Shown: piece by piece, positions 16,975 through 64,000 of the stretch
Position numbering within the stretch: position 1 is the first letter of the stretch
How the letters are laid out: each line of letters opens with the position of its first letter
Source: Aquilaria yunnanensis
Taxonomy: Eukaryota; Streptophyta; Magnoliopsida; Malvales; Thymelaeaceae
DNA length: 64,000 nt
Reading direction: 5' to 3'
Assembly (NCBI GenBank): GCA_039654915.1
Contig: CM077594.1
Coordinates: 92,394,893-92,458,892, forward strand
Position numbers and translations under genes: made by a program
Notes under the pieces: generated by a model
What the model was told of the DNA's origin: nothing
The model's database searches: none
Seen by the model: only the letters and a program-made list of their open reading frames with translations

Positions 16975-19900
16975 TTAAAATTTCCACCTGAGACGGCTCA
17001 AAATTGGTTTCTTCGGGACAGGTATGCATTTGACAATCCAACCGATGGGCCAAGACATTGCTGCAATGCCAATGCACACACCCCATTGGCCCCAGTTCAA
17101 CCTCTCCGTGTCCGCAAACCGCTTCAGAAATTCCACCATCACCACCTGAAGAATCACTGTGATTCCAATGATCCCCAAAAACGACTTGTTCTGATGTATT
17201 CCCTTAAACACATTCTGCTTCTCAAGCTTCCTCGCGTTAAATTCGTTGAAGACTTGGCAGAGGACGAAGGTGTTGAAGACCAGTGTCTCATTCACTTTAG
17301 CGGTCACCCCAAAGATGGACTCACCTCTGAACTGTAGGGTCAAGAGCACAGCTACCTGATACAAGGCCTGAGCCAGTAGGTTCCTCCACATGATGTTTGT
17401 GATGAGCGGTTCTGTTCTGCCAACAGGTGGCCTCTCCATGAGCTCCTTGGTGGGCTGCTCGGTGGCTAGAGCCAGAGCACCTAATGTGTCCATGATCAAA
17501 TTCACCCACAGCAGTTGAACAGCTGTCAGAGGAACTTCGCCTGCAGAAACGGCTGCCACAAAATTGATGACCAGCGCTGCAACGTTAACAGTCAGCTGGA
17601 ACTGAATGAACTTCTGGATGTTGGTGTAGACACATCTTCCCCACCTCAAGACAGTTGCCACCGAGGCGAAATTATCATCCAAGATAACAATGTCTGAGCT
17701 CTCTTTTGCCACCTCAGTCCCTTGGATCCCCATGGATAGGCCTATGTCCGCCTCTTTCAGAGCCGGCGCATCGTTGGTCCCATCCCCTGTAACTGCAACC
17801 ACATGGCCTTTCTGTTTCAAGCATTGCACCATTAGAAGCTTGTCAAATGGAGAAGATCTGGCCATCACCCGGATGCTGTCAATCTTCTCCATCCTTTCCT
17901 CGTGAGAGTAGTTTCGGAATACCTCTCCTTCCACAACTGCATCACTCGAAATTCGCTGACCAGGACTCAGAATCCCGCACTCTGTTGCTATAGCTTTTGC
18001 AGTGAAAACATTGTCACCTGTTATCATCTTGATGTTCACTCCAGCAAATTGGCAATGTTCCACTGCCTTCTTTACACCAGGTCTACATGGATCTTTAATA
18101 CCCACCAGTCCAAGTAAAGTCAAGCCACCTTCTTCCATCTGCCTAGTCTTTCTGGGCTCTTCTTCATGAGCCACTTCTGGAAGTTGCTTTTGAGCGAAGG
18201 CAATGCACCGGAGGCTACTTGCAGCCATTCCTTGAATAATTTGCTCCAAGTTTGTCCTTGCATGATCATCCAGTTGCTTGGCAAATCCGGCAGCATCATA
18301 GTAGCTTGAACACATTCTTAAAATCATCTCCGCAGCTCCCTTCCAATGCACATGGATGGTGTTGTCCGCTTCCTTTTGAATCAGAACACCGCTCCTTTTC
18401 TTCTTCGAATTGAAGGCTTCAACATGGAGAATCCTGCACTTCCTCTTCACTTGATCCATATCCATTTTCATGTCCATAACAGCCCAAGAAAGAATAGCCT
18501 TTTCAGTTGGACTACCGGAGAACTCAAACTCTGAACTCAACTTGAACACACTTCCAGTAGTGTTTAAAGCCACTCCTTGATGAATCAACTCAACTACGTG
18601 AGGGGAAATCGACGAAGTCTCTCCCATACATTCTTGGCCCAGCCAAAACTTTGTGACCTTCATCTTGTTAAGGGTCAGAGTTCCTGTCTTATCAGTGCAG
18701 ATGGTTGTAGCCGATCCCATAGTCTCGCATGCTGAAAGCTTCCTCACCATAGCATGATCCTTCATCATCCTCTTCATCGAATATGCAAGTGTAAGGGTAA
18801 CAGCGAGCGGCAACCCCTCGGGGATAGCAACCACTATGATAGTGACAGCAGCAGCAACAATCCCCACAACAGAGTTCGCTATATCATCACTCTTCGTCCT
18901 GCTTCCGTTAAATTCTTGGTTCCCATTTTCGTCCTCAGTGTTCCCTGTGAAGTAGCGCACAAGCAAGACCACAAGAACAAGGAAAGCGACGGCTAAACCC
19001 ACCTTACCGATGGCCGAAGTCAACTTGTTTAGTCTCTCTTGTAGTGGTGTAGTTTCGCTGCTGTCCTTGCTAATTTGGCTCATCATTTGGCCCCAGGTTG
19101 TGTTCATTCCGACACAAGTTACAACCATTTTAGCGTAACCGTCAGCAATTTTAGTACCCGAAAACAAGAAGGGGTTTTGGATTCTATCCACCTCCACATG
19201 TTCGCTCTCTCCGGTCATGCTGGATTCGTCTACCTGCAGGGAATGCCCGTCCAAAAACAGGCCATCGGCAGGGACTTGATCGCCTATTTTCAAGCAGACA
19301 ATATCCCCGACAACAATGTCGAAGATGGAAACCTGCTGACGCCGGCTTCCTCTGACGACATCAATCTGGATGTTTTTGCTGACTTTGGACAACTTGTCGA
19401 ACTGCCTGCTCTGCCGGTAGTTACTGACGGCCGAAACGGAGATGACCAGGATCACGGCCACGAAAATGCTCCCTCCATCGTACCAGCCTTCTTTGGGGCC
19501 ATTCTCTTTGATCCCGAATCCGAGCGACAGAGCTGCGCACCCGAGAAGAATGAGTATGGTGAGATCCTTGAAAGCCTCGATCACAAAATGGAAGAACCCT
19601 TTTGCGGGTGGTTTCTTGTATTTGTTGGAACCGAACGCTTCCTGCCGGCGTGAAATGTCCTCTGTTCCCCCAGAAAGGCCAGCTTCGGCGTCTGTTTCCA
19701 AAGCGGAGACAACATGATCGACCCCACCAAGTTGCTGAAGGTGTTTGTGATCCTTGTTCTTCACGAGATCGGTCAAAGCGGTTTGATCGACTTGGAAGCT
19801 GGTGTAGGTAACGGGGATGGTGATGTGGGGTAGGTGTGTTTTGGGTTTAGAAGAAGGGGAGATTTTGGCGAGGGAGGAGAGAGCCCTGCAGCAGTAAATG

Positions 19901-20007
19901 GTGGTGAAAGCAGAGCGCCATCTCTTGCCCGGTTTGCTTAGGGTTGAGGGAACATCAAGCAAACGAAAGATGCAGTTGGCCAACTCCTCATGGAGAGCCA
20001 TCGACAT
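16975..20007 (-). CDS. autoinhibited Ca2+-ATPase (type IIB P-type pump), intronless
   Basis: A 1010-aa calmodulin-regulated calcium pump of the ACA12/ACA13 type, expected at the plasma membrane and exporting Ca2+ from the cytosol. Motifs in order: N-terminal basic aromatic stretch SKPGKRWRSAF (24-34), a likely calmodulin-binding autoinhibitory site; first membrane pair about 148-195; TGES 265-268; PEGLP 396-400 in membrane segment 4; phosphorylation motif DKTGT with Asp439; nucleotide-binding KGAAE 556-560; TGDGTNDAP 740-748; and a hydrophobic C-terminal third. Lack of introns is usual for the ACA12/13 branch. I chose the Met at 20007, because the in-frame ATG at 20136 lies beyond the likely cap site: its next codons are the TATA box itself. 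A second Met two codons on (20001) is also possible. No break was seen. Confidence 0.95.
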   Translation of the reverse strand: MSMALHEELANCIFRLLDVPSTLSKPGKRWRSAFTTIYCCRALSSLAKISPSSKPKTHLPHITIPVTYTSFQVDQTALTDLVKNKDHKHLQQLGGVDHVVSALETDAEAGLSGGTEDISRRQEAFGSNKYKKPPAKGFFHFVIEAFKDLTILILLGCAALSLGFGIKENGPKEGWYDGGSIFVAVILVISVSAVSNYRQSRQFDKLSKVSKNIQIDVVRGSRRQQVSIFDIVVGDIVCLKIGDQVPADGLFLDGHSLQVDESSMTGESEHVEVDRIQNPFLFSGTKIADGYAKMVVTCVGMNTTWGQMMSQISKDSSETTPLQERLNKLTSAIGKVGLAVAFLVLVVLLVRYFTGNTEDENGNQEFNGSRTKSDDIANSVVGIVAAAVTIIVVAIPEGLPLAVTLTLAYSMKRMMKDHAMVRKLSACETMGSATTICTDKTGTLTLNKMKVTKFWLGQECMGETSSISPHVVELIHQGVALNTTGSVFKLSSEFEFSGSPTEKAILSWAVMDMKMDMDQVKRKCRILHVEAFNSKKKRSGVLIQKEADNTIHVHWKGAAEMILRMCSSYYDAAGFAKQLDDHARTNLEQIIQGMAASSLRCIAFAQKQLPEVAHEEEPRKTRQMEEGGLTLLGLVGIKDPCRPGVKKAVEHCQFAGVNIKMITGDNVFTAKAIATECGILSPGQRISSDAVVEGEVFRNYSHEERMEKIDSIRVMARSSPFDKLLMVQCLKQKGHVVAVTGDGTNDAPALKEADIGLSMGIQGTEVAKESSDIVILDDNFASVATVLRWGRCVYTNIQKFIQFQLTVNVAALVINFVAAVSAGEVPLTAVQLLWVNLIMDTLGALALATEQPTKELMERPPVGRTEPLITNIMWRNLLAQALYQVAVLLTLQFRGESIFGVTAKVNETLVFNTFVLCQVFNEFNARKLEKQNVFKGIHQNKSFLGIIGITVILQVVMVEFLKRFADTERLNWGQWGVCIGIAAMSWPIGWIVKCIPVPKKPILSRLRWKF

Positions 20008-20120
20008 GAGTTTGAGTTGAGTAAGAAAATCAAGGGATTCGAAGGAAAAACAAAGGTAGTGATGCAGAGGACGTTGATTAGGTAGTGTTGGCTTGGCTGA
20101 TAAAGATTTCCATGCGATGG

Positions 20121-20130
20121 ATATATATAG
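20121..20130 (-). promoter_or_regulatory. TATA box of the Ca2+-ATPase gene
   Basis: On the minus strand this reads CTATATATAT, about 115-120 bp upstream of the chosen start codon. It predicts a cap site near 20095 and a leader of roughly 90 nt. Confidence 0.65.
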
Positions 20131-20136
20131 TGGCAC

Positions 20137-50435: not shown

Positions 50436-51963
50436 TTCTTGATCAGGTAAGGCCCGCAAAGGCATCAAATAACAATTTTTGTTTTTAATTTCATAAATCA
50501 AGTTTGCATAATTGATATTGTTCCCTTTTGTGTGTGGGGAGTTGAAAAAGAAAGATAAAGAGACAAAAAAGAACGAATGAATGGATGGAGTGCACCAAAT
50601 AAGGGTGGATATAATATCATCTAAAAGAATATTTTAGTAAATATATTACTATGCCTAATTGCACATATGTGCATGTTGGACATCACCGTTTGTTGGTTCG
50701 TTGGAGGAAATCAACCAAGATAGGCCTAAGTGCATCAACAACCCTATAACTTTGTTAACTCACACAAATAAATCCTCCAATTCAAACTCAGTAATTTAAG
50801 TTCTCTAACTTTAAGAAATGGCACAAGTTGGTCCAAGCCAAATCATGTGTTTTGGAAAAGTTTCAAAATGATCCTTAATGTCTCTTTTATTCATGTTTAT
50901 GAAATTGTAGTTCATTTTTTTTTATTTAGTCCATGAAAAAGTAAAATTTATTTAAATAGATGTTATTTCTATTACTATTAAATAATCTTTCTATTAAACG
51001 TTGATTAAAACTAGCTTATGGTATACTTGATATAAATTTTTTTAGTACATAACTAAAATTTCTTATTTTTATTTATATTGATTTTATAAAATTTTATCTA
51101 AATCAAAGAACCTTAAAAGTACTTTTAGAGTATTGTTTAACAAGTTCTTTGTTTTTTTATAGTTTGTCTGTGAGTATGTATTTGTATATTGTATGGAAGT
51201 ATTTTTTTAATCTTTTTTAATAATTTTTTATGAATAAATAAATAAATCATACCAATTGGAAGTGTCTTTATCTCCATATTTTTTTTTTGTTGTATTATCA
51301 AGAGATGTTCCAATATAATAGACCAAATTATCCTTGCTTCACATTACATTATCATATGTTATTCATATAAAAAATTTTAATTTTTTTTCTCTTACAAAAA
51401 AGATAGTTTTATTGCCCATGTTATGAAAAGGGCTCATCTAATAATAAATGTATTTGAAATCACTCATCTAATAATAAATGTCTCTTAAACTAAGTGACTA
51501 TGCAGGGAAATCATTTTATATATTTTATCTTAGTTTATAATAGTTTTTTTTAAAACTTATAATTCTTCACCATATAATTACTTTTTAAAATTTTGAAAAA
51601 TAATACCAACAATATAATAATTACAACAAAATTTAAATAATAGTTATTATAATAGCAACATAATGAGTATCAAACTAATTAAATACTAATTATGTTTGAA
51701 AATCACTTGGTTTACTTTTTTTAATTGATCAATTAACAATAATAATTTTTCTTCGTTTATAACTATTTATTTGTAATAAGTCATTAAGTGTTTCTATAAA
51801 ACACTATCAATTATATGATACTTCACAAATAACAAAAATACACATGAAACTAAATAAATTTAAGCTATATATGGACTAAAACAATTAAAAAAAAATCAAC
51901 TACATTTATATATCTTTGGACAAGAGAGATTAAGGTACATGTGTGAATTTTGGCCCCCAACAC
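50436..51963. other. spacer with a single MULE-type end
   Basis: At 50723 GGCCTAAGTGCATCAACAAC starts a sequence like the ends of the foldback elements at 20855 and 33939. I found no partner end before the LTR retrotransposon begins, so it may be truncated or interrupted by that insertion. The rest is AT-rich and unassigned. Confidence 0.35.
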
Positions 51964-53544
51964 TGTTGACACCCAATTTCGTCCGACTATTAAAAATAAA
52001 TAATTAATTAAAAATTATTAACTAAAAAAAAAATTAATTAATTTAACAAAAATAATATGTTATTAGTTTAATGGGTGACATTTTTGTCATATGGTGTTAG
52101 TTAAAAAATATATATATATAGGTATACATATATATCTGTATGTGTGTATTAGAAATATTAATTAATTATTAATTATTTCTTAATTAATTATTGATTAATT
52201 AAAAAAATTAAAAAAAAATTAAAGTTAAAAATAGAAAATTCCTCCCCCAGCTGAGCCTTCCTGGGGAAAGGCTGGGATATTTTTAGAAGGCTCTAGGCCT
52301 CTATCATTGGCGATAAAAATCTGATCTTCTCTCCCTCTCACGGGGAGCTCTGGCTCTCTCTCTCGAAAAAAAATATCTCTCAGCTCTCCTTCTCTTCTCT
52401 CTGGCTCGGGCTCACTCTCCCTCTCTTCTCTTTCTCTCGGCCGAGCTCTCTCACTCTCTCTCGAACAAACCCAGCTCCCGCCCTCTCTTCAGCCATCGCC
52501 AACGCCTCCTCGTCTCTTCGTCTCGCCAGCGCCGCTGCCACCTCGCCTCGCACTCTCCTACCACCTCGCCTCGAGCCTGCCAGCGCCTAAATCCTTTCTC
52601 CCCCTGCTCTCGGTCACTCTGCCTTCCTTTCGCTGCCGCACCGCCGTCGCGATCGAACCCGACGCCGCCAATCTTCCAGCTCGCCTCGTCTACCTCGTCG
52701 CGCCAATCGCGGCCGCCCCTCACCGTCTCTTCCCCTGCCGCGCCCAGCTCCAGTCGCTCCACCGGGTCACCCACTCAGCTCGCCACTCCTCCGCCATCCA
52801 CTCTCCCGGCCATACGCTCGCTGTCGCGTCGCCTTCATCAGCTTCGCCTCACCTGACCCTCGCTGCCGTGTCGCCTCCGTCAGCTTCACCTCGCCGTCCC
52901 CTCGCCCTTGCTGCTTGTGCTTCGCCGCCGCCTCTCCCCTGTCTTAGCCACCGTCGCCTCGTCACTTGAAGATTGAAGACGAAAACGTTGCCAGACGCGT
53001 TTAATACGTTGACCAAGTCAAAGTTATTTGTTTTTGGGTAAAATTCATATTTAGCCCTTAATTCTTTTTTATTTTATCCATTTAAGTCACTAACTTTATT
53101 TTCTTTGCAGATTGAGCATTAATAGCAAGCTTTTATTGTTTTTTTTTATTTTCTTTCGTTTATCTGTCTATTTTGGCCATCCATTAAATTTAGCCATAAA
53201 ATCCATGTATGAGTATAATCTGGAATTTTTATTTATTTTTATGTCTATTTTATTTTTATATATTTAATTTTGGGATAGTTCATTTATTATTCGCGATGCA
53301 TCTAAAAAGAATTTATTTCGCGTGGATTTAATAAGACTCATAAACGAACTTAGGATAATAGTAAGTTATAAAATCCATATCCAGGTGGTTCGGTTAGAAT
53401 CCATGGTTTAGATATTAATTGATTTTATTTAAAACAAAACAAAAAAAAAAACAAAAATTAAATAACGAAAACCAGATCGCAAACCAACCCGTTGTCGACC
53501 GGGATCTGATCTGAAAGTCATAAGTTTGGCATAATTCTATTTTT

Positions 53545-54110
53545 TTTGCCCCTGGATTTATTTGATTTGTTTAATTGAGAATCTAATGTTGTTTTGATTT
53601 GCGAGTTAGTTACTGATTTATTTATTTTCTTTTTATGTTTTTGTTCAGTTGATTAAAGGCATGAATTATCTTAGGAATTAACATCAAGTTTAATTATGTG
53701 ATTAGGTTATATAAATATTTTTAATAAATAATTTGTCCTCGGATTTAGTTGATTTGTTCATCTGAGACTTTAAGGTTGTTTTGATTTACAATTTGGCCAT
53801 TAATGTTTATTTTCTTTTATGTCTTTGTTTTGTTCATTTGATTAAGAGCATGAATAAACTTAAAGAATTAATATTAAGGATAATTGTGTGATTCGATTAG
53901 ATAAATATTTTTAATAAATAATTTGCCCCTGGTCTTATTTGATTTGTCTATTCGAGACTCTAATATTGTTTTGATTTACAAATTAGCCACTGTTTTACTT
54001 ATTTTTTTTTAGTTTTGTTTGGATTATTAAAGTCATGAATTAGCTTAGAAAATAACGTTAAGCATAATTATATGTTTAGATTAGATATATTTTTTTTAAA
54101 TGATTAATCT
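53545..54110 (+). repeat. ~190-bp tandem repeat inside the LTR, three units
   Basis: Units begin near GCCCCTGGATTTATTTGATTTG (53549), GTCCTCGGATTTAGTTG (53734) and GCCCCTGGTCTTATTTG (53924). Each continues with TGTTTTGATTT, a TTTATTTTCTTTTTATGT-like run, GATTAAAG-CATGAAT and AATATTTTTAATAAATAATT. Confidence 0.85.
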
Positions 54111-54354
54111 AAAATTAGTTTTGACATATTAAAAAAATAAAAATCACATTTTCGGAAAATTTTGATCTGTGTGGGACATTTAATAATTAATTAAATAACT
54201 AATAATAAATTAAATTTAAATTAATTTTCATATCCGGATGATCCGGCAGGATCTACGGTTTGAAAAATATCAACCTTTTTAATTAAATAAATTAAATAAA
54301 TACAAAGATAAAAATTCATATTTTACGGTATAAATTAAATTATATAAAATTTCA

Positions 54355-54445
54355 TCAAATTCCGTGTCCGGGTGACTCGGCAGAGTCCATGGTTCGGAAT
54401 CAAATCTTCCGTGTCCAAATGACTCGGCAGAGTCCATGGTTCGGA
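54355..54445 (+). repeat. ~48-bp tandem repeat inside the LTR, two units
   Basis: GACTCGGCAGAGTCCATGGTT occurs twice, each preceded by CCGTGTCC; weaker single relatives stand at about 53380 and 54230. Confidence 0.85.
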
Positions 54446-54719
54446 AGTATAAAATTCTATACAAATTAATTACAAAAAATTCACATCCGATTAATTTAGT
54501 TCAAATTTCTAGTTTGAAAATTAACTGAATATTTTCTAAAAGCAAAGCAAAACAAAATTAAAAATCAACTAAGGTGCCAATTTTGGGCGCTATAACAAAG
54601 TTGTTTTAGCGTAACCGTACTCCCGATCCCTGAACTCTCGCAGACCAATTTTAAGGTATCCAATCGACCTAGGTAAACTGATTGGTGGCGACTCCCGAAA
54701 ACCCGCACGTTGCCACAGC

Positions 54720-54738
54720 TTGGCGACTCCACTGGGGA
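54720..54738 (+). other. tRNA primer-binding site
   Basis: TTGGCGACTCCACTGGGGA directly after the LTR has the TGG start required to pair with a tRNA 3' CCA end. It resembles the arginine-tRNA-type site reported for Tat/Ogre elements; the exact tRNA is inferred. Confidence 0.7.
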
Positions 54739-55748
54739 GTTGACGTTAGTGAGTCGAGCCTACAAGTTGATTTGTTTTGATTTGCTTTGCTTATATTTAT
54801 GTGGATTTATATGTTATATTTACTTAGGTAAACATGCATTATGCATTCACAATATGAAGCTCTATACCCGAGCTTCTTCAAAGCGAACACGTTCTTTCTA
54901 AGCGGAATTGGTGTTGTTGTCCTTGAGAGGCCATGGTCTCCAAGCCTTCACCGGTTTCAAAGTAGCAAAGTAGTGTATTGCCTTCTGAGACGGTTAGTCT
55001 CTGCATGGGCCCACGAAAAGCTACGACTCGAATTAATCCATTCCTTACATAAACCCTAGAGGGTAAGGAATCGGGCTGTCACTATAATTTAGTGACGGTA
55101 TTCGGGAACTATCCCTTGCCTTTTTGATAAGCCACCTTATGCATATAGAACTCCCCACTTAACCTTAGAACTGACCATAAAATTTCTACCATTTTACCAA
55201 CGCCATAAGCATATCCTTGTTATGCTGTGTTGTTACTCTACACTTTTCTTCGTATGGTTTTAACTTGTTTATCCATAATACTTCATGAGTTGTTAATTGC
55301 TATTTAACTTATTAATAACCTTATCTTTCTTGTGCAATTATTCTTCATGCATCAAAACCACGCATCAAATTATGCTAACTTTTTGGTCTTTATAATGACA
55401 ACTAAAAGTTTTGAAGTTCCACGATAATGGATAAGCAAACTCACTCATCGCATGCATGCATTACATTAATCACGTGCATATAAAGTCTGATAAAAACATA
55501 ATCTCACTTTATATTGCATGCATTCCATTACATCAATCACGTGCATATAAATTTTGATAAAAACATAATCTCATTATGTATTGCATGCATCCATTGCATC
55601 AATCATATACATGTAAAATCTAATAAAATGAATCTCACTTTAAAAAGGTAAAATTGGATCTCAACACCAATATCCAACTCGGCTCCAAACAAGACTAATG
55701 GCAGAGCAAACCGAAGGATGCCTCACAAATATTAAGTCCAAGAGAAAA
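54739..55748 (+). other. untranslated leader of the retroelement
   Basis: No supported gene. The ~70-bp tandem array at 55440-55640 is its only clear structure. Confidence 0.5.
55440..55640 (+). repeat. ~70-bp tandem array in the leader, three units
   Basis: Each unit contains GCATGCAT, ATTACATTAATCACGTGCAT or a variant, ATATAAA, TGATAAAAACATAATCTCA. The third unit is the most diverged. Confidence 0.85.
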
Positions 55749-56974
55749 CATGGCCGAGCAAATAAAACAATTAATGGAATTAATCAACGGGAAAGCAACC
55801 CAAGTCCTCGTCAAAGAACCACAAGATCTCACTTATCCTCACGGATTCACTTAACAACGGGTCTCAGCTCAAGAAAAGCTTTTTCATGACTCAGGCCCAT
55901 CTGATAACATTCATTTAAGGCACAATCCAATTTTTGAAGGAAAGAAGCCCCTGCTTAAAAAAGAAGAGGATACTAAAAAAAACTCGAGGCCATAGAAAAG
56001 AGATTTCGGGTCATTGAAGGAGGCACTATATTCTGATCTCTCTCAGTGAATGACCTCTGTTTAGTGCCAGATGTCGTAATCCCTTCAGACTTTAAGGTGC
56101 CAGACTTTGTAAAATATGATGGAACAAGTGATCCCATCACTCACATCACGTTGTTTCTAAGAAGACTACAACCACTCACAAAAGACGAGAAAGTATGGAT
56201 AACATTTTTTCAAGAAAGCCTTACAAAGTCAGCACTACATTGGTATCTAAGTCAAGGTCCAAAGAACATCAAAACATGGAATGACCTCGCTCAGGCTTTC
56301 ATCAATAACTACAAGCATGTTATGGACTTGGCCCCAGATCGCCGTACTTTCCAGAATATGGAGAAGAATGAACAAGAGACCTTTAAGGAATATGCACAAA
56401 AGTGGAGAGACTTAGCCATACAAGTTCAACCATCTATGATAGAAAGAGAACTGATCACCCTGTTTATCCAAACATTAAATAGACCATTTTATGAAAAACT
56501 ATTTGGGAACACTTCAAGTAGCTTTTCAAATATGGTATTATCCGGAGAAAAGATTGAATTTGGAATCAAAACAGGAAAGTTGGTTGATTCTTCAATTGGA
56601 GGGTGTTTCAATAAAAGAAGCGAAGCTGTCCAAAACATCATCTCCAAGTCCTATGGTCTACTACCACTCATGTTATGAGCGAAATGATATCCTATTGAGA
56701 CTGTAATCTTCAAGGCTCCCTCATCAGCACCACATACCACTTATGGGAAGAAAGCTACTCAAGTCGATTCAATTTCCACAAGCTACAAACCTATTATCAC
56801 CCATACCAATGGTAGCAAAAATCAAGTAGCATCTTCTATCCAAGTTGGAATGACCCAAATGCCAAATGTGATTACCAAAAAGGTTCAATTGGGCATTCAA
56901 CTGATAATTGTGTGGCACTGAAACTCAAGTTGGTCGAGTCCAAGTTGCTAGGCCATAATGTGATTGATAATTGA
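55749..56974 (+). pseudogene. broken gag gene of Tat/Ogre type
   Basis: The order of a Tat-type Ty3/gypsy gag can be followed through several frames. MAEQIKQLMELINGK (from 55749) is followed by YPHGFT and a stop. KKLEAIEKRFRVIEGG with a TGA shortly after lies near 55980-56036. An open stretch 56046-56678 of 210 codons reads LCLVPDVVIPSDFKVPDFVK, FQESLTKSALHWYLSQG, PDRRTFQNMEKNEQETFKEY and FSNMVLSGEKIEFGIKTGK, the retrotransposon gag core. After another frame change come WNDPNAKCDYQKGSIGHSTD and NC (56846-56974), the CX8HX4C knuckle region. The protein normally packages element RNA. Stops and shifts show this copy cannot make it whole. Confidence 0.85.
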
Positions 56975-59238
56975 AAGTGAAGATTTTGAACTGGAATTAC
57001 ATTGATTTTGGAAGGGCTTCAAGTCAGATCCGACCTAACAGTTCACACACACTTTTGAATAACAGGGAATCCTTTGAATAAACTTGTATCTTTGAAAGCT
57101 TGCAAAAGTAATCTAATAGTAAAAATCTCTTAGATTTAGTCCAGAATCTAGGGTGTAGTCTTTGCTAAATGGACACCTGGTAATTCTTTTTGTTCTCCAA
57201 CAAAAAGATTTAATATGTGCATTCTACCACTTTTTACTTAAAATTCCATTTTTACGTCCACATATTCTACCACTTTCTACAAAAAAAAATTCCATTTTTA
57301 CATCTATCTCTCACTCTTTGCCATTACACTACCCATTATTGTCATCACATTTTACTTTCTAAATGATACTACTCGTGGATGAAAATAAAAAGTTAAGGGA
57401 AATTTGATAGTAGTGATCTTGAAAGTGCTGCCAAATCTAGTAAGAAGGATTTCAAATGTTGCACCTCAACCCTCAAAAAGGGAATTCGCAGTGGTTATCA
57501 ACATTCTTGCAAGAAGTCTCGGGTTAGCTTCCAAAGAAGGTAGCTCTCATATTAAATGACTTCAGTGGCCTTCCAATTCTCACAAATGCTCAACACAAGA
57601 AAATGTTCTCAGTTCTCTGCAACACAAACTCCCAAAAAGAAAGAGAAATTCATCCCTTCCATCAAAAGACGACAAGGGAAAATTCAAATCCAAAATCAAA
57701 AGAGACTGAGAACAAATACGAGCAAGTAAAGCCACTTGAGTCATCTCACTTCAAGGGAGTTATCAAGTATGTCATCACCATAGCTCACACAAAAAAAAAA
57801 AAAAAAACAAAAACAAAAACAAAAAAAAAAGGAAAGAAGAAAAGAAACGAAGCTCAAGTTAGAGCCAAAGAAAGAAAAAGAAAAAAGTGAGCTATGGATT
57901 CTAGACTGAAAACCTACAAAGGCGGTTTAGAAGACAAAAGCAATCCTCAAGACAAGCGTACATAAAGATTACGATAGTTGGGGGGCAACAGATGAGGTTT
58001 AACTTTCTGGAAAAGGTGGCAAGTTTGAAGTCATCACTATTGAGTTTTTCACCATAATCAGATATGCTCACGAGTAGTATTAAAAGACCCTTCTTTCACA
58101 CCACTCAAACTTAACTTTCCTCAGACCTAACATTTACCCCTTGGTATCATCCTCATTCAGCTAAAAGACTACCACAAAAAAAAAACCACTCAAACTTAAC
58201 TTTCCTCAGACCTAACATTTACCTCTTGATATCATCCTCATTCATAAAAAAACTATCATTATGAATTACGTTTCTATCTTATTGCCTTGTACAGTTTATG
58301 TCTTCGAGTTGGAAAGGGAAGAATGGCAGGATATTTTAATTAAAAACAAAGACCGTAAATTACTTTGTCAAGCTTTGCAAATTGATGAAAGTTTTTCTTT
58401 AAGGCCAAACCATTATTCATTAATGTGTGTAGACTTAAAAGTGAGGAGATAGATTGAGACTTTCTTTAAGAAGATGTGGTTCTTCTAAGAGAGATTTACG
58501 ATCAAGTGCCATCACAAAGGTCTAGAAATGCTCGACCTTCTGTTAAAGGCGAGGTGATACCTTTTATCCACATAAACACCGTATTCAGGGGGGCAAAGTA
58601 GTCCCTACGAAGCGTAAGAGGAGCACTGCCAACAAAGAAGCTCAATAGATAAGGAGGCAAGTCTTATGAATCAGAACCTGAGTTTAAGGAAGAGCAATCA
58701 TTCAGACTATAACATGGGGACAAGTAAGTGTCGGCACGGCCACAAGAAAATGGACAAAGAGACATTGGAAGATAAGCCTTCGATGATATGAAATCTATAA
58801 CAGGGACAATTGTCCAGAGAGGCATAAAGTATAAGGCGGGTGAACATTAAAGAAATTGAGGCCAAAATTCAAGAACAAGTCAAGAAAATGGGATTTTGAA
58901 AAGAGTCGGGCTTTTGAGGCATTGAACAAGAGCTGAGAAGCATAAAGAGATTCAACGATAGTCCAAGAAGGCAATCACAAAGAGGATCCAGTAAAGTAGA
59001 GACATGAAGAATTGGATCCATCCAAAAATCCAAAAAAAAAAAAACTTAATTACACATGCTTTGCATTCATGCATTTCACATCATGCATGCATGACTTTTA
59101 CATGATAGGAATCAAATGGGAAACACATCCACCGCACCGTTACAGCAGTATAAGCTGAGATCTCAATAACATCAGCTCTTACCAATCTATCACTGGATAC
59201 ACAGCTAATATGCGGGACCAACCCGCATCAGGAATTCA
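56975..59238 (+). other. degenerate internal region, no pol domains
   Basis: I looked for reverse transcriptase, RNase H and integrase motifs and saw none. There is an A-rich tract at 57790-57835, AGTTGGGGGGCAAC (about 57976) and CAGGGGGGCAAAG (about 58587), which resemble purine tracts, and a 63-codon frame at 58261-58452 of unknown meaning. Probably decayed retroelement sequence. Confidence 0.5.
58101..58243 (+). repeat. 85-bp tandem duplication
   Basis: CCACTCAAACTTAACTTTCC followed by TCAGACCTAACATTTACC and ATCATCCTCATTCA occurs at 58101 and 58186. Only about two substitutions separate the shared ~58 bp, so it is fairly young. Confidence 0.9.
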
Positions 59239-59617
59239 AGGATAAGGTAGACAATATGTCAAAAGCCTGGAAATCGATTCAATAATCGAGACTACACCTG
59301 GAAGGACAGGATTGACGTCAGCTAGTAGTATCCAAGGTAAGAGATAGCTATAGCCAAGGATAAGGCAGATATAAAAAAGGATAAAGTAGACAATATTGTC
59401 AAAAGCCTGGCAATTGATTCAATAATCGAGGCTACACCTGGAAGGACAGGATTGATGCCAGCTTAGCAGCATCCAAGATAAGAGATAGCTGTGGTCAAAG
59501 ATAAGGTAGACATCAAGAAATATTGTCGTTGAAAATTTGTCAAAAGCGGACAATGGATTCAATAATCAAGGACTGGATCGATGTCAGCTGGATGGAATAT
59601 CAAAGATAAGAAATATC
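59239..59617 (+). repeat. 115-140-bp tandem array, three units, just before the gene cassette
   Basis: Units start near 59239, 59357 and 59497. They contain GATAAGGTAGACA, TTGTCAAAAGC, GATTCAATAATCGAG, CACCTGGAAGGACAGGATTG and TAAGAGATAGCT. The third unit is more diverged and truncated. The array ends about 140 bp before the first zinc-finger gene. Confidence 0.85.
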
Positions 59618-59756
59618 ATTCACATCAAAATAAAGTAGGATCCACTTTTTCGGTTAAGCGGCGGATACGGTACTCCGTGACTTTCAAGTCGGTTCTCTCA
59701 ATTGCCCATAATAACTGATTCTTTCCTCTCTTCTTTCTTTTACTTCCCTCTAGAAA

Positions 59757-60305
59757 ATGGATCCTACTCTTTCTGTCTTACAAAAATATTTTCCTTCTCT
59801 CCCAATGAACATTCTCAAAAAGATCTACCAAGTTCGCTGTGAACGATTAAGAGTTCTGATGCATAAAGGAATCCCTGAAGATGTGCGGTGGTTAATCGAA
59901 GCCAAGGTTCGTCTGGCAGGTGAAATCCCAGAGGCATTTGTGTCTCACATGCCTGGTATAGGCAAAAGCTCTTATGCCAAAAAGCGAAGAGCGAAAAGGT
60001 TACGAGTCTGCCACAAATGTGGACGGTGGACTTGTAATATTAAATGTCGTTCTTTAGGAATGATCTCCGATAATCAAGAAGATAAAATACGATTCATCAA
60101 GAATGGCCTGAGTAAGGACTCATTGGATGATATCCGATTGACTCTTGAGACACATTCTTGTGGATCAGTGCAACGCGAACTTCTTGGTTTATGGAGTATT
60201 TTTCATGAAGAACGAGAACGTTACAGTCCCGGGAATCTGACTTTAAATGACCATGTTTGCCAGCTTGTAAGAAAGCTGGATGGGAAGCAAACCCTCGACT
60301 CATAG
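59757..60305 (+). CDS. virus-like basic zinc-finger protein, copy 1 (182 aa)
   Basis: An intact 182-aa basic protein. Helical N-terminal half; then GIGKSSYAKKRRAKR (67-81), a likely nuclear-localisation and RNA/DNA-binding patch; then CHKCGRWTCNIKC (85-97), a C-X2-C-X4-C-X3-C zinc finger. Further cysteines are at 135 and 168. The order Gly-Lys-Ser, Tyr-Ala, basic run, CHxC finger resembles the small cysteine-rich nucleic-acid-binding proteins of carlaviruses, although the finger spacing differs and the C-terminal ~85 residues are extra. In viruses those proteins act in silencing suppression and transcription; a role here is inference. About 70% identical to copy 2 by hand count. An AT-rich CAAAATAAAG at 59626-59635 sits where the other copies have their TATA box. 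It could alternatively be a plant or retroelement protein family unknown to me. Confidence 0.7.
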   Translation: MDPTLSVLQKYFPSLPMNILKKIYQVRCERLRVLMHKGIPEDVRWLIEAKVRLAGEIPEAFVSHMPGIGKSSYAKKRRAKRLRVCHKCGRWTCNIKCRSLGMISDNQEDKIRFIKNGLSKDSLDDIRLTLETHSCGSVQRELLGLWSIFHEERERYSPGNLTLNDHVCQLVRKLDGKQTLDS

Positions 60306-60467
60306 AAGCCGTTAATGCCGTTACTAGACGTAAAGCCAGTGGAAGATGTGAGCCACAGTCACAATTACTGTACATACAGTTTGTTATATTTGGAAAAGTT
60401 TGCATTTTCTTTTGACAGATGTACATGCTCCCCTAAGTGTAATCGACACGTTATCCCTTTTCATCAC

Positions 60468-60475
60468 TATAAATG
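60468..60475 (+). promoter_or_regulatory. TATA box of zinc-finger copy 2
   Basis: TATAAATG within TTTCATCACTATAAAT, 127 bp upstream of the start codon. The same box precedes copy 3 and, with one change, the LOG gene. Confidence 0.6.
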
Positions 60476-60594
60476 CGTGTTCTTCCTTCTGATTAAGCAG
60501 CGGATAAGATACCCCGTGACTTCTAAAGTCGGTTATTCCAGTCTCCTACAATAACTGATTCATTTCCCTCTTCTCTCAAATTCTTCTCTCATCA

Positions 60595-61143
60595 ATGGAT
60601 TCTACTCTTTCTGCACTGCGAAAATACTTTCCTTCCCTTCCAATAAAAGTCCTTAAAAAGATCTACCTTGCTAGATATGAAAGAATCAGAGTTTTTACAC
60701 GCAAAGGCATTCCCGATAATGTGCAGTGGATAATTGAAGCTAAGGTCCGTTTGGCGGGTGAAGTTCCAGATGCATTTATGCCCCGCATGCCCGGTTTAGG
60801 TAAAAGCCGTTATGCCACAAGGCGAAGAGCAAAGAGACTAGGCGTGTGTTATAAATGTGGGCGATGGAATTGTAATACTAAATGTCGCTCTTTAGGATAC
60901 ATCTCCATAAATCGTGAAGATAAAAGAAAATTCATTAAGAATGGCCTGCGTAAGGAATCTCTGGAAGATATCCGAGAGACTCTTGAAACGCATTCTTGTG
61001 GAAAAGTGCAAGGTGAAATTATCGGTTTATGGATGACTTACCATAAAGAACGAGACCGTTACAGTCTTGGGAATGTGACTTTAAACGACCCTGTTTGTCA
61101 GTTTGTAAGAAAACTGGATGGGAAGCAAATCCCCGACTTATAG
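60595..61143 (+). CDS. virus-like basic zinc-finger protein, copy 2 (182 aa)
   Basis: Same length and architecture as copy 1. Basic patch GLGKSRYATRRRAKR (67-81); finger CYKCGRWNCNTKC (85-97). The C-terminal ERDRYSLGN and TLNDPVCQFVRKLDG are shared with copy 3. About 74% identical to copy 3 and 70% to copy 1 by hand count, with no stops or shifts and all finger cysteines kept in each copy. This suggests the reading frame has been under selection since duplication. The spacer to copy 1 (289 bp) contains one copy of the TGTACAT...TTTTGACA module and the TATA box. The pyrimidine-rich leader ends TTCTCTCATCAATGG, which gives a good start context. Family resemblance is as for copy 1: carlavirus-like cysteine-rich protein, not proven. 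Confidence 0.7.
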   Translation: MDSTLSALRKYFPSLPIKVLKKIYLARYERIRVFTRKGIPDNVQWIIEAKVRLAGEVPDAFMPRMPGLGKSRYATRRRAKRLGVCYKCGRWNCNTKCRSLGYISINREDKRKFIKNGLRKESLEDIRETLETHSCGKVQGEIIGLWMTYHKERDRYSLGNVTLNDPVCQFVRKLDGKQIPDL

Positions 61144-61293
61144 AAGGCATTGAAGCCATTACTGGACATAAATCAGTGGAAGATGAGAGCCACAGTCATG
61201 ATTGCTGTACATATAAGCTGTCATTTGTCTTTTCTTTTGACAATAATGTACTTGCTTCTGCAAGTGTAATTAACGCATTATCCCTTTCATCAC

Positions 61294-61301
61294 TATAAAT
61301 A
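61294..61301 (+). promoter_or_regulatory. TATA box of zinc-finger copy 3
   Basis: TATAAATA within TTTCATCACTATAAAT, 74 bp upstream of the start codon. The preceding TTATCCC is also shared with copy 2. Confidence 0.65.
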
Positions 61302-61367
61302 TGTGTTAGTTATTTCCGTTTCCTACAATCACTAATTTCTTTCTTCTCTTAAATACCTCCTTCATCA

Positions 61368-61916
61368 ATGGAGTCTTCTCTTTCCGCTCTACGAAAGTAT
61401 TTTCCTTCCTTCCCAATAAATGTTCTTAAAAAGATTTATCAAGCTAGATGTGAACGATTCAGAGTATTTATGCACAAAGGCATTCCTGATAATGTGCGGT
61501 GGCTAATCGAAGCTAAGATTCGTTCAGCTGGTAAAGTTCCAGAAGCGTTCTTTCCTCGTATGCCCGGCTTTGGTAAAAGCGCTTATGCCAAAAAAAGAAG
61601 AGCAAAGAGGCTAGGCGTTTGTCATAATTGTGGATGGTGGATTTGCGGTAATAAATGTCGTTCTCCAGGAGTGATCACCAGAAATCGTAATGATAGAATA
61701 AGATTCATTAAGAATGGCTTGCGTAAGGAATCTCTGGAAGATATCCGAGAGGTTCTTGAAGTGCATTCTTGCGGAATAATGCAATTTGAGATTGTTGGAT
61801 TATGGATAATTCTCCAAAAAGAACGAGATCGTTATAGTCTTGGGAATCTGACTTTAAACGATCCAGTTTGCCAGTTTGTGAGAAAACTGGATGGGATGCA
61901 AATCGCCGATTCATAG
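61368..61916 (+). CDS. virus-like basic zinc-finger protein, copy 3 (182 aa)
   Basis: Third tandem paralogue, again exactly 182 aa. Basic patch GFGKSAYAKKRRAKR (67-81); finger CHNCGWWICGNKC (85-97) keeps all four cysteines, although neighbouring residues change more than elsewhere (GR to GW, N/T to G). ESLEDIRE and ERDRYSLGN-TLNDPVCQFVRKLDG match copy 2. The leader is shorter than in copies 1 and 2, with the hairpin-like CGTGACTT-AAGTCGG part deleted, placing the TATA box 74 bp from the ATG. The 3' flank (GAAGGCATTGAAGCC, TTACTGGA, CAGTGGAAGA) is shared by all copies, so the duplication unit was promoter plus gene plus trailer. Function unknown; virus-like origin is inferred from the basic-patch/finger order. 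Confidence 0.7.
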   Translation: MESSLSALRKYFPSFPINVLKKIYQARCERFRVFMHKGIPDNVRWLIEAKIRSAGKVPEAFFPRMPGFGKSAYAKKRRAKRLGVCHNCGWWICGNKCRSPGVITRNRNDRIRFIKNGLRKESLEDIREVLEVHSCGIMQFEIVGLWIILQKERDRYSLGNLTLNDPVCQFVRKLDGMQIADS

Positions 61917-61980
61917 AAGGCATTGAAGCCGTTACTGGATGTAAAATCAGTGGAAGACGTGAACCAAAGTCACGATTACC

Positions 61981-62257
61981 GTACATGCTAGCTGTCGCTT
62001 TTGAAATTATCCTCCCAATAATGTACCCACTCCTGACATGAGATACAGTTATGACTACTGTATATAGCTGCCACTTTTGAAATTTTCCTTCTCTTCCAAC
62101 AATCACGTACTTACTCCTGACGTAAGCTACAGTAGTGACTACTGTACATGCTAGCAGCTATTTTGAAAATTTTCCTCCTCTTTTAACGATAGTGTACCCA
62201 TACCTGACCAGAGTCATACTCGTGACTATTGTGTATAGCTAGTAATAATGTATCCAC
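61981..62257 (+). promoter_or_regulatory. ~80-bp upstream module repeated 3.4 times before LOG
   Basis: Units start at 61981, 62060, 62144 and, partial, 62231 with GTACATGCTAGC or GTATATAGCTG. They continue through TTTTGAAATT-TCCT, AATGTACC-ACTCCTGA and GTGACTACT. Related single modules lie in the spacers before copies 2 and 3. One unit holds TACAGTAG-TGA-CTACTGTA (62128-62146), a perfect 8-bp inverted repeat with a 3-bp centre, and TGACGTAAG (62118-62126), a sequence of the TGACG/as-1 type. It probably acts as an enhancer; that is inference. Confidence 0.5.
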
Positions 62258-62297
62258 TCTTAAAAAAAAAAAAATTATTATTTTATCTTTTCATCTC

Positions 62298-62305
62298 TAT
62301 AAATA
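62298..62305 (+). promoter_or_regulatory. TATA box of the LOG gene
   Basis: TATAAATA within TTTTCATCTCTATAAATA, nearly the same box as before zinc-finger copies 2 and 3. It lies 48 bp upstream of the chosen start and implies a leader of only about 20 nt. Confidence 0.6.
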
Positions 62306-62345
62306 TATCCTATTTTCTTCTTTTCTCACATGGGTAAGGATAGGA

Positions 62346-62975
62346 ATGGAGAAAACCTTCACTCGTAAACCCCGAAGTATTTGTGTATTTTCTGGAGCTT
62401 TTCCTGGAGAAGATGAAGAGTACTTAAAGGCAGCCAACCATTTGGGTAGTGTATTAGCTGAGCGAAAAATACACTTAGTTTATGGAGGAGGTAGTGTCGG
62501 ATTAATGGGAGCTGTAGCATCAGCAGCATCTTTAGGAGGAAGCCAGGTTCTGGGTATTATCCCTACATCTCTGAAATCGGTTTCTGGGGGCACGATTAGA
62601 GAAGAGCTAGTGGTTAAAAATCTCCAAGAGCGCTTGTTACAAATGCTTTTTAATGCTGATGCTTTTATCGCTCTACTAGGTGGCTTTGGCACATTAGGAG
62701 AAGTCTTCCAAATCGCTTCCATGGCCCAACTTAATTTGCATCAAAAACCCATTGGGCTGTTAAATGTTAACTATTTCTTCGCAGGTCTATTATCTTTTAT
62801 GAATCGTGTTGTGAAGCAGAAGTTTATCCCTGAGGTGGCACGACGAATCATAATATCCGCAACAACTGCTGAAGAATTGCTAGATAAAATGCAAGCTTTT
62901 GTTCCTGAACCAGATCCAGCGATGATCCAAATAGACTGGGCACGACAGTCTTTCCCAACCAGTTCCGTCCCATAA
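62346..62975 (+). CDS. LONELY GUY-like cytokinin riboside 5'-monophosphate phosphoribohydrolase, intronless
   Basis: 209 aa. LOG enzymes release active cytokinin bases from their nucleotides. KPRSICVFSGAFPGEDEEYL opens the Rossmann-like fold; YGGGSVGLMG at about 46-55 is intact. The catalytic Arg is kept in NLQERLLQM, although the usual following Lys is Leu. The usual PGGxGTxxE signature reads LGGFGTLGE: Pro is lost, but the GG, GT and final Glu remain. KPIGLLNVNYFF and ATTAEELLDKM follow, as in plant LOGs. Plant LOG genes normally have several introns; this one has none, so it looks like a retrocopy or captured cDNA. I chose the Met at 62346; the frame is open back to 62229, but that includes the TATA box. 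An out-of-frame ATG at 62330 opens a 12-codon uORF overlapping the start. Activity cannot be judged. Confidence 0.88.
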   Translation: MEKTFTRKPRSICVFSGAFPGEDEEYLKAANHLGSVLAERKIHLVYGGGSVGLMGAVASAASLGGSQVLGIIPTSLKSVSGGTIREELVVKNLQERLLQMLFNADAFIALLGGFGTLGEVFQIASMAQLNLHQKPIGLLNVNYFFAGLLSFMNRVVKQKFIPEVARRIIISATTAEELLDKMQAFVPEPDPAMIQIDWARQSFPTSSVP

Positions 62976-63483
62976 TTGTCCTTTACCCGGCCTGTTGAAG
63001 TATTGTGGAAGAAGAAGCGATCCGATCCGTTTTTCTTGTCCTTTAGTTTTATTATAAGTATTTTCTTTCGTGTTCCAGTTTTTCTTTTTAGGGAATTTCC
63101 TTTTTATCTTATAAGATAATTTCGTTCATGCTGATATTAAAACCATGGGACAATGCCTTTAGGTTGGAATGGCTGAGTAAAGAGTAATTTTTATTACTCT
63201 TGAGACGCATCCTATTAGGTCTACTAGGCATAACATTTTGGGGTACTTAAACTTCAAACTTATTTGGATGACATATCTCTCAAGCGAATCTATATTTATT
63301 GAAGGAAATATTAGATGAACCTTGGATATTGATTCCAAACATCCGTTCCCTTTACATAATTTGTCAGTGTTATTGTCATCATCAAGATTCACTCGTTTTA
63401 TCGAAGCCTAATTCTTTGCACTCGCCTATTATGAAAATTCACACTTTCGAAGAAAATTATTCCAATTTCAATTGCTTTCATAT
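62976..63483 (+). other. downstream of LOG, nothing recognised
   Basis: Pyrimidine- and AT-rich sequence; no further gene. The next clear structure is the tandem array starting near 63484. Confidence 0.45.
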
Positions 63484-64000
63484 AAATTTCGCTCGAGGTC
63501 CTAAGGAAAGCTCCTTTGCCTCGAAACCAATTAATTTTCATCATCGGGGTTTTAAGGATGTAACCTTTGCCTCGAAAATAATCAATTTTTATCATCGAGG
63601 TCCTAAGGAAAGCTCATTAGCCTCAAAATCAATTTTCACCATCGGGGTTTTAAGGATGGAACCTTTGCCTCGAAAACAATCAATTTTCATTCAACGGTAG
63701 GACTGCTCCTATCGTCGGGGTTTTAAGGATGGAACCTTTGCCTCGAAAACAATCAATTTTCATTCAACGGTAAGACTGCTCCTATCGTCGGGGTTTTAAG
63801 AATGAAACCTTTGCCTCGAAAGCAATCAATTTTCATCACCGAGGTCCTAAGGAAAGCTCCTTAGCCTCGAAATCAATCATCAATTTTTCTTTAAACGATA
63901 AGAGAGTTCTTATCGCAGAGGTTCTAAGGTAGGGCCCTTAACCTCAAACTTTCAACGATAGGAGAATTCCTATCGTCGAGGTTCTAAGGAGAGTTCCTTA
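63484..64000 (+). repeat. tandem array with a conserved AAGG...CCTT stem, running off the window
   Basis: About nine units of 47-77 bp start near 63484, 63540, 63592, 63639, 63713, 63786, 63837, 63914 and 63973. The consensus is CATCGAGGTCCTAAGGAAAGCTCCTTAGCCTCGAAATCAATCA in broad outline; two variants alternate (GAGGTCC and GGGGTTTT). Longer units add CAACGGTAGGACTGCTCCTAT. It resembles the tandem arrays of Tat/Ogre 3' regions. Confidence 0.85.

What the first reader, a model, noticed from the sequence alone, without database searches (positions are those of the whole stretch)
59239..63483. Virus-like zinc-finger genes plus a cytokinin-activating LOG gene as a cassette in a gag-only retroelement
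Seen: three intact tandem 182-codon genes and an intronless LOG gene, all on the strand of a Tat/Ogre-like element whose gag is dead and whose pol is absent. Known: cysteine-rich proteins of carlaviruses bind nucleic acid, suppress silencing, and in one chrysanthemum virus act as a nuclear factor causing cell proliferation; LOG raises active cytokinin. Inference: the element, or a virus-derived segment it captured, carries a set of host-manipulating genes whose frames are kept while its own genes decayed. I know of no described retroelement with this content.
Basis: partly seen in the sequence, partly recalled or inferred. Interest (0 to 1): 0.92.

Follow-up and report, generated by a model that had tools for sequence, protein, structure and literature searches.

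The report
Virus-like zinc-finger cassette in plant retroelements
A plant jumping gene carries three copies of a zinc-finger gene related to silencing suppressors of plant RNA viruses, next to a plant-hormone gene; relatives occur in several plants, and one sits just behind a retroelement integrase, so this looks like a real and apparently undescribed kind of retroelement cargo.

Summary
Three tandem 182-codon ORFs (59757-60305, 60595-61143, 61368-61916) match Pfam Viral_NABP and Carla_C4 above the curated cut-offs; a LOG-type ORF follows (62346-62975). All lie on the strand of a 2.75-kb LTR-like block and a gag ORF; no pol was found. The frames carry purifying-selection signatures (NG86 dN/dS 0.21-0.33).

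The cassette is not peculiar to this gag-only copy. A search found 130 NABP relatives, plant wherever named. A contaminant contig (L001) carries one 204 bp behind a Ty3/gypsy integrase, with the window's 5' and 3' non-coding boxes. A Rhamnella gene model holds NABP then LOG, and contig lengths shared between the two hit lists suggest further pairs. LOG domains in Ty3/gypsy elements were already reported (Citrus, Populus); my limited literature searches showed no report of the NABP or the pair.

Best reading: extra ORFs in the env position of Ogre/Tat/Athila retroelements. A basic zinc-finger protein homologous to flexivirus silencing suppressors travels, at least sometimes, with a LOG enzyme; 98 of 120 listed LOG relatives end in an EAR-like LxLxL tail that this copy lacks. 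Function is inferred. Not settled: the 3' LTR (window ends), direction of the viral link, copies in this genome (search unanswered).

The parts
51964..54717 (+). 5' LTR-like block of a Tat/Ogre-like element (TG...CA ends, 2754 bp)
   Evidence: read directly; no second copy in the window; lineage recalled
54720..54738 (+). primer-binding-like site TTGGCGACTCCACTGGGGA (tRNA-Arg type, recalled for Ogre/Tat)
   Evidence: recognised by recall; unique in the window (pattern taken from the window)
56046..56678 (+). gag domain, 210 codons open
   Evidence: PF03732 8e-11, PF19259 3.1e-7
59238..59571 (+). 2.4 copies of a 140-bp direct repeat ahead of the cassette
59651..59721 (+). conserved 5' non-coding box of NABP copy A, shared with L001 1670-1739
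   Evidence: local score 76 against at most 36 in 50 shuffles; alignment
59757..60305 (+). NABP-like ORF A, 182 aa, basic run + C-X2-C-X4-C-X3-C
   Evidence: PF05515 4e-7, PF01623 1.9e-5
60303..60380 (+). conserved box from the stop codon onward, also after copies B and C and in L001
   Evidence: alignment A5
60460..60474 (+). TATA context TTCATCACTATAAAT ahead of copy B
60595..61143 (+). NABP-like ORF B, 182 aa
   Evidence: PF05515 1.7e-7
61286..61300 (+). TATA context TTCATCACTATAAAT ahead of copy C
61368..61916 (+). NABP-like ORF C, 182 aa
   Evidence: PF05515 2.8e-6; most deviations from conserved columns, 9 of 52
62016..62208 (+). 84-bp tandem repeat with the palindrome-like TACAGTAGTGACTACTGTA (62128-62146), between copy C and LOG
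62290..62304 (+). TATA context TTCATCTCTATAAAT ahead of LOG, one base different from that of B and C
62346..62975 (+). LOG-type ORF, 209 aa, no intron; motif LGGFGTLGE in place of the usual PGGxGTLEE; no LxLxL tail
   Evidence: PF03641 2.7e-31
63493..64000 (+). tandem arrays (51-, 73- and 98-bp periods) to near the window end

Best explanation
The region is the 3' extra-ORF cassette of a non-autonomous Ty3/gypsy retroelement of the Ogre/Tat/Athila group. Shown: a unit of 5' box, NABP ORF and 3' box is conserved between the window and a contig with an integrase gene (L001); the NABP is homologous to flexivirus NABP/CRP; a LOG gene lies next to NABP here and in a Rhamnella gene model. Inferred: the NABP enters the nucleus through its basic run, binds RNA or DNA through its zinc finger, and protects or promotes the element's transcripts (silencing suppression or transcriptional activation, as described for carlavirus CRPs). 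Inferred: LOG raises active cytokinin, favouring dividing or meristematic cells from which new copies can be inherited. In this copy B, C and LOG each have a TATA context of their own, the NABP is triplicated, no pol is found, and LOG has drifted at its motif.
For: Pfam hits for all three ORFs; 24 of 24 members of alignment A1 match both viral families at E <= 0.1. BFVD ranking: 25 of the first 29 of 49 matches are named alpha-/betaflexivirus proteins (best E 0.036, none <= 0.001). L001: integrase ORF 194-1594 (rve 2.3e-16, H2C2 1.2e-12), NABP ATG at 1799, same strand, 74% DNA identity with window 59651-60391, non-coding flanks included. P0094 (Rhamnella): residues 1-178 match window NABP A and 190-293 match window LOG. 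Contig lengths of at least 2000: 3 exact pairs among 32 x 31 values, 0.15 expected from neighbouring offsets. The triplicated clade: A pairs with P0002 and C with P0001, so the duplication is older than this copy. NG86 dN/dS 0.23-0.33 among copies, 0.21-0.29 against L001. B's 15-base TATA context recurs with at most one mismatch only ahead of C and LOG, and 0 times in 30 Markov copies of the window.
Against: No 3' LTR is seen, so the cassette's membership in the 51964 element is not proven. L001's integrase looks Athila-like while the window's gag looks Ogre/Tat-like (both recalled), so the same cassette would sit in two lineages, or the window holds a chimera or nested insertion. L001 shows no significant LOG match in the ~980 bp after its NABP (best 0.032 over 13 residues). 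Its NABP passes the PF05515 cut-off but not that of PF01623 (20.4 against 20.9 bits). Shared contig lengths are indirect: below 2000 bases 9 exact pairs stand against 2.75 expected, some on contigs too short for both genes. The window LOG departs at the PGGxGT motif and may be inactive. The Cys spacing (2-4-3) differs from that of carlaviruses (2-12-4; PMC8839810, passage). No expression or functional data.
Confidence: 0.62

Rival explanations
1. A segment of an RNA flexivirus was reverse-transcribed and integrated here (endogenous viral element), independently of retroelement biology.
For: Homology to flexivirus NABP/CRP. Betaflexivirus replicase integration is known in cucumber (PMC3136472, passages).
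Against: No other viral domain in the 28 + strand pieces scanned. The 120 listed relatives are 45-79% identical and plant where named; one lies directly behind an integrase with shared flanking boxes. No match in viral contigs, which is weak evidence since that collection may hold few RNA viruses.
Confidence: 0.08
2. The NABP and LOG units are domesticated host genes that happen to lie in repeats.
For: Open frames, purifying selection, own TATA contexts.
Against: Many relatives, several of the ten looked at cut short or altered; one LOG cluster, P0222, stands for 205 member sequences; integrase adjacency; LTR-like block and gag beside it here.
Confidence: 0.12
3. Chimera: an Athila-type 3' region (cassette) was inserted into, or recombined onto, an unrelated Ogre/Tat 5' half; the cassette is not part of the element that begins at 51964.
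For: Gag and primer site look Ogre/Tat (recalled); L001 and P0077 carry an Athila-type integrase end (recalled signature; rve in L001).
Against: No protease or integrase remnant of the P0097 or P0077 type in the window, nor of L001's pol part; same strand; no border marks were recognised.
Confidence: 0.3
4. Neutral decay: the frames are open only because the insertion is young, with no function for the element.
For: No pol found; LOG motif drifted; copy C deviates at 9 of 52 conserved columns.
Against: Copies A-C differ at 19-24% of DNA sites yet keep length and frame, NG86 dN/dS 0.23-0.33; A stays open in only 8 of 2000 random mutations. These show past selection on the lineage, not function of this copy.
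Confidence: 0.15

Closest known systems
Flexivirus NABP / cysteine-rich protein (Pfam PF05515, PF01623)
   Same: Basic run followed by a four-cysteine motif; profile matches over about 90 residues; likely nucleic-acid binding
   Different: 182 aa with extra N- and C-terminal parts; Cys spacing 2-4-3 instead of 2-12-4; carried in plant DNA
LOG (YgdH) domains in Ty3/gypsy elements of Citrus and Populus (PMC9289625 section 12, citing Steinbauerova 2011)
   Same: LOG-type gene carried by a gypsy element, perhaps the same gene lineage (not tested)
   Different: No NABP partner was mentioned in the section and passages I read
Ogre / Tat / Athila elements with extra ORFs (PMC6317226 passages, PMC11963269 passages and part of section 11)
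   Same: Primer site downstream of the LTR, gag, sense extra ORF between pol and 3' LTR (NABP behind integrase seen in L001), tandem arrays
   Different: Extra-ORF domains named there are plant mobile domain, Transposase_28 and Athila ORF-1; sense ORFs of the Retand region behind pol carry no known domain
Orchid gypsy elements with an m6A demethylase (2-ODD/AlkB-like) ORF (PMC9289625)
   Same: A gypsy element carrying an extra ORF of a domain kind also known from flexiviruses (stated in that paper's discussion)
   Different: Different protein; there closest to RNA demethylases of human and Arabidopsis

Membership tests
Viral_NABP / Carla_C4 proteins | Profile match above the curated cut-off | tested here: met
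   three ORFs, both families; 24 of 24 members match both at E <= 0.1
Viral_NABP / Carla_C4 proteins | C-X2-C-X12-C-X4-C zinc finger after a basic run | tested here: not met
   Basic run present, but spacing is C-X2-C-X4-C-X3-C; viral spacing from PMC8839810. Homologous lineage, not a member of the viral type
Viral_NABP / Carla_C4 proteins | RNA silencing suppression / nucleic-acid binding | not testable with these tools
   needs the bench
LOG cytokinin riboside monophosphate phosphoribohydrolase | Fold family (PF03641, TIGR00730) | tested here: met
LOG cytokinin riboside monophosphate phosphoribohydrolase | PGGxGTxxE motif (recalled as diagnostic) | tested here: inconclusive
   Window has LGGFGTLGE; 88 of 116 relatives have PGG[LFIY]GTLEE. 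The last Glu is kept, the Pro is lost. NCBIfam equivalog CtkRMPhLog scores below its cut-off for the window and also for P0140
Ty3/gypsy OTA (Ogre/Tat/Athila) element | gag domain of retrotransposons | tested here: met
   PF03732 8e-11; lineage recalled
Ty3/gypsy OTA (Ogre/Tat/Athila) element | LTR and tRNA primer site | tested here: inconclusive
   TG..CA ends read; primer site recognised by recall, unique in window; no partner LTR
Ty3/gypsy OTA (Ogre/Tat/Athila) element | pol with RT, RNase H, integrase | tested here: not met
   not found in 28 of 28 + strand pieces nor by tblastn with P0077 and P0097; the window copy is non-autonomous
Ty3/gypsy OTA (Ogre/Tat/Athila) element | Matching 3' LTR and target-site duplication | not testable with these tools
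   window ends at 64000; the genome search unanswered

The most novel reading that the evidence does not exclude
Plant OTA retroelements hold an old accessory gene pair: a nuclear zinc-finger protein that shares ancestry with the silencing suppressors of flexiviruses (the gene passed between RNA viruses and retroelements, possibly from element to virus), and a LOG enzyme fitted with an EAR-type repressor tail. Together they would counter silencing and shift cytokinin or TOPLESS-linked transcription to favour transposition in dividing cells.
Probability: 0.25. Interest if true: 0.9.

Novelty: new variant of a known kind. Interest (0 to 1): 0.66.

Why it matters
If right, plant LTR retroelements and RNA flexiviruses share a silencing-suppressor-type gene. 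That would make the origin of the small cysteine-rich proteins of flexiviruses directly testable, and would add a possible anti-silencing and hormone toolkit to the known extra genes of plant retroelements.

Tried and rejected
Viral contigs were scanned for the NABP as one protein and as alignment A1, for LOG relative P0140 and for two DNA boxes: nothing. Phage records: nothing. Rfam (51900-64000) and tRNA genes (whole window): nothing. The 5' box as a structured RNA: z-scores -0.62, 0.00 and -1.80, not convincing. A post-LOG 'GGACAATG' motif shared with L001: not significant, 120 of 300 shuffles reach it. The first structure model (pLDDT 58.9) was not used for searches; the second (68.2, pTM 0.34) gave one PDB match at E 7.5; A1 against PDB sequences gave two at E about 1. 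A coding extension behind the NABP stop: among the relatives held then only P0032 reads through it as one protein, and copy B is frame-shifted there, so left open. The unique-capture idea was rejected.
Full report
Observation. The three ORFs and the LOG gene are present as described. All three ORFs match PF05515 (Viral_NABP) and PF01623 (Carla_C4) above the gathering scores; the LOG ORF matches PF03641 and is closest among solved structures to Arabidopsis At2g37210. The LTR-like block 51964-54717 has TG..CA ends. A primer-binding-like site follows at 54720, recognised by recall; one search shows only that it is unique in the window. A gag ORF matches PF03732. I recall the site and this gag type as Ogre/Tat; no call tested the lineage. 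The 28 + strand stop-to-stop pieces of at least 45 aa between LTR and cassette (gag ORF apart) and behind LOG (listed) show no retroelement domain at E <= 0.1; four weak matches (RFX5, CENP-B, ASA5, Wntless; E 0.0018 to 0.054) are all below their cut-offs. The 22 - strand pieces were not scanned. No second LTR copy lies in the window.

Selection. Copies A, B and C align without gaps, 69-74% identical in protein and 76-81% in DNA; NG86 dN/dS is 0.29 (A-B), 0.23 (A-C) and 0.33 (B-C), and two other methods give 0.19-0.34. Against the NABP of L001 it is 0.21, 0.23 and 0.29, with dS near 1 and so rough. Placing A's 138 differences from L001 at random keeps the frame open in 8 of 2000 trials. Of 52 columns that are at least 95% conserved in 82 relatives (those of 160-206 aa among the 120 listed, P0001 and P0002 left out), A deviates at 3, B at 4 and C at 9.

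Relatives. A protein search with copy B gave 130 proteins at E <= 0.01, 120 listed. All listed ones with an organism name are plants: Xanthoceras, Acer, Rhamnella, Orobanche, Parasponia. A search with a core alignment gave 576 at E <= 0.1, 120 listed; the organisms named there are Parasponia and Striga, none a virus. The listing is capped, so viral relatives further down cannot be excluded. In a tree of 42 rows (3 window ORFs and 39 relatives of 175-206 aa: P0001, P0002 and every second one of the rest) A pairs with P0002 (100/96) and C with P0001 (100/99), and the five form one clade with B (100/98). The duplications are therefore older than the split from P0001 and P0002, whose source genomes are unknown.

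Viral link. All 24 members of alignment A1 (21 listed relatives chosen by me and the 3 window ORFs) match both viral Pfam families at E <= 0.1. A model of ORF B with 123 sequences has pLDDT 68.2 and pTM 0.34; about its first 50 residues are the best part. Searched against predicted viral structures it has 49 matches at E <= 10, none at E <= 0.001 (best 0.036), but of the first 29 matches 25 are named proteins of alpha- or betaflexiviruses, 3 have no name and 1 is the p23 of a closterovirus (virus families recalled). TM-scores are low (0.14-0.23 by query), so this is mostly sequence-driven support. The Cys spacing differs from that given for a carlavirus in PMC8839810 (passages). [quoted passage not shown]

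Element link. One scan of bacterial/archaeal genome contigs with A1 returned a single locus, L001, 3330 bp, labelled as a Nomurabacteria MAG but with plant retroelement content, so I take it as contamination. It holds an integrase ORF at 194-1594 (rve 2.3e-16, Integrase_H2C2 1.2e-12) and, 204 bp further on the same strand, the NABP ATG at 1799. That NABP matches PF05515 at 3.5e-8 and PF01623 just below the cut-off. Window 59651-60391 and L001 1670-2435 are 74% identical in DNA. The match includes a 70-bp box ahead of the ORF (score 76; 50 mononucleotide shuffles at most 36) and a box behind the stop codon, also present after copies B and C; copy C keeps only part of the 5' box. The integrase part has no counterpart in the window. 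I recall its sequence type as Athila. P0077 (Rhamnella) joins the same kind of integrase end to a NABP (70% identical to L001 over its first 111 residues). P0097 (Orobanche) joins what I recall as an Athila protease piece to a NABP; Pfam sees no protease or integrase domain in either. L001 has no significant LOG match in its last ~980 bp.

LOG link. P0094 (Rhamnella) is one gene model whose residues 1-178 match window NABP A and 190-293 match window LOG; its listing gives PF01623 and PF03641, while my own Pfam scan at E <= 0.01 showed only the LOG part. Among contigs of at least 2000 bases, 3 lengths (2128, 4511, 8723) occur in both the NABP list (32 values) and the LOG list (31 values), 0.15 expected per offset; at 3000 or more, 2 against 0.025; below 2000, 9 pairs against 2.75. 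The cut at 2000 was mine, and these shared contigs are inferred, not read. B's TATA context (15 bases) recurs at most one mismatch away only ahead of C and LOG, and never in 30 first-order Markov copies of the window; with two mismatches allowed a degenerate form has 5 matches, reached by 3 of 100 shuffles. The window LOG pairs with P0121 (100/100) in a tree of 28 rows chosen by me; three Xanthoceras pieces with the usual RK motif group apart (100/99), but the split from the rest is weak (79/87). Of the 120 listed LOG relatives (7244 found) 98 end in LxLxL with at most three residues after it, 85 of these after a basic run by my pattern. In 109 of 116 aligned relatives the R of the RK motif is followed by I, L or M. 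LxLxL is one of the two EAR repressor patterns (PMC6283911, abstract start in listing). The window LOG and P0121 lack it. The control is thin: the three Xanthoceras proteins lack it too; the lack of such a tail in Arabidopsis LOGs is recalled.

Prior work. LOG (YgdH) domains in gypsy consensus elements of two Citrus species and Populus trichocarpa are reported in PMC9289625 (section 12 read), citing Steinbauerova 2011 (not seen; I recall that its abstract speaks of Athila-like elements with LOGL4 similarity). That section names 9 of its 15 domains, not the NABP; its supplement was not seen. PMC11963269 (passages and first part of section 11) finds no known domain in sense ORFs behind pol of Retand elements. 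PMC6317226 (passages) names plant mobile domain, Transposase_28 and Athila ORF-1. PMC7264820 (passages) does not contain 'LOG' or 'cytokinin' in its main text. Paper searches, listings only: 20 of 170 seen; 20 of 248; 20 of 584; 8 of 8; 12 of 976; 2 of 2, the viral Pfam names, both on glyoxalases; 5 of 5; 8 of 127; 5 of 5, carlavirus with LTR retrotransposon. None of the listed titles reports the NABP in retroelements or the pair; only open-licence papers are held.

Mechanism. Shown: homology, unit conservation, selection, adjacency. Inferred: nuclear nucleic-acid binding and silencing suppression or transcriptional activation by the NABP; cytokinin activation by LOG relatives; possible repressor recruitment by their tail. 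The window LOG, with LGGFGTLGE and no tail, may be a weakened copy. It remains open whether the window is one Tat/Ogre-type element or a chimera with an Athila-type 3' part.

Noticed in passing
L001 1-3330: A contig filed under a Candidatus Nomurabacteria MAG looks like plant retroelement DNA (integrase + NABP), i.e. contamination of the record.
   Followed up: yes
60303-60380, 61141-61217, 61914-61990; L001 2345-2420: About 75 bp from the NABP stop codon onward are as conserved as the gene; in copies A, C and L001 they stay in frame for about 22 codons, and P0032 reads through them with a sense codon. Read-through or an RNA/cis element is possible.
   Followed up: partly
62016-62208: 84-bp tandem repeat carrying the palindrome-like TACAGTAGTGACTACTGTA between copy C and LOG, similar by eye to the boxes behind the NABP stops.
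   Followed up: partly
LOG relatives P0121-P0240: 98 of 120 end in LxLxL (EAR-like), 85 of them after basic residues; the canonical RK motif is R plus I/L/M in 109 of 116 aligned.
   Followed up: partly
59238-59571: 140-bp tandem repeat directly ahead of the cassette, origin unknown.
   Followed up: no
63493-64000: Tandem arrays of 51-, 73- and 98-bp periods near the window end.
   Followed up: no
16975-20136 (-): A long uninterrupted ORF (1053 aa) resembling a Ca2+-transporting ATPase by reading; not searched.
   Followed up: no
P0064/P0073: Two NABP relatives share a longest contig of 2595 bp, a hint of tandem NABP copies in another genome.
   Followed up: no
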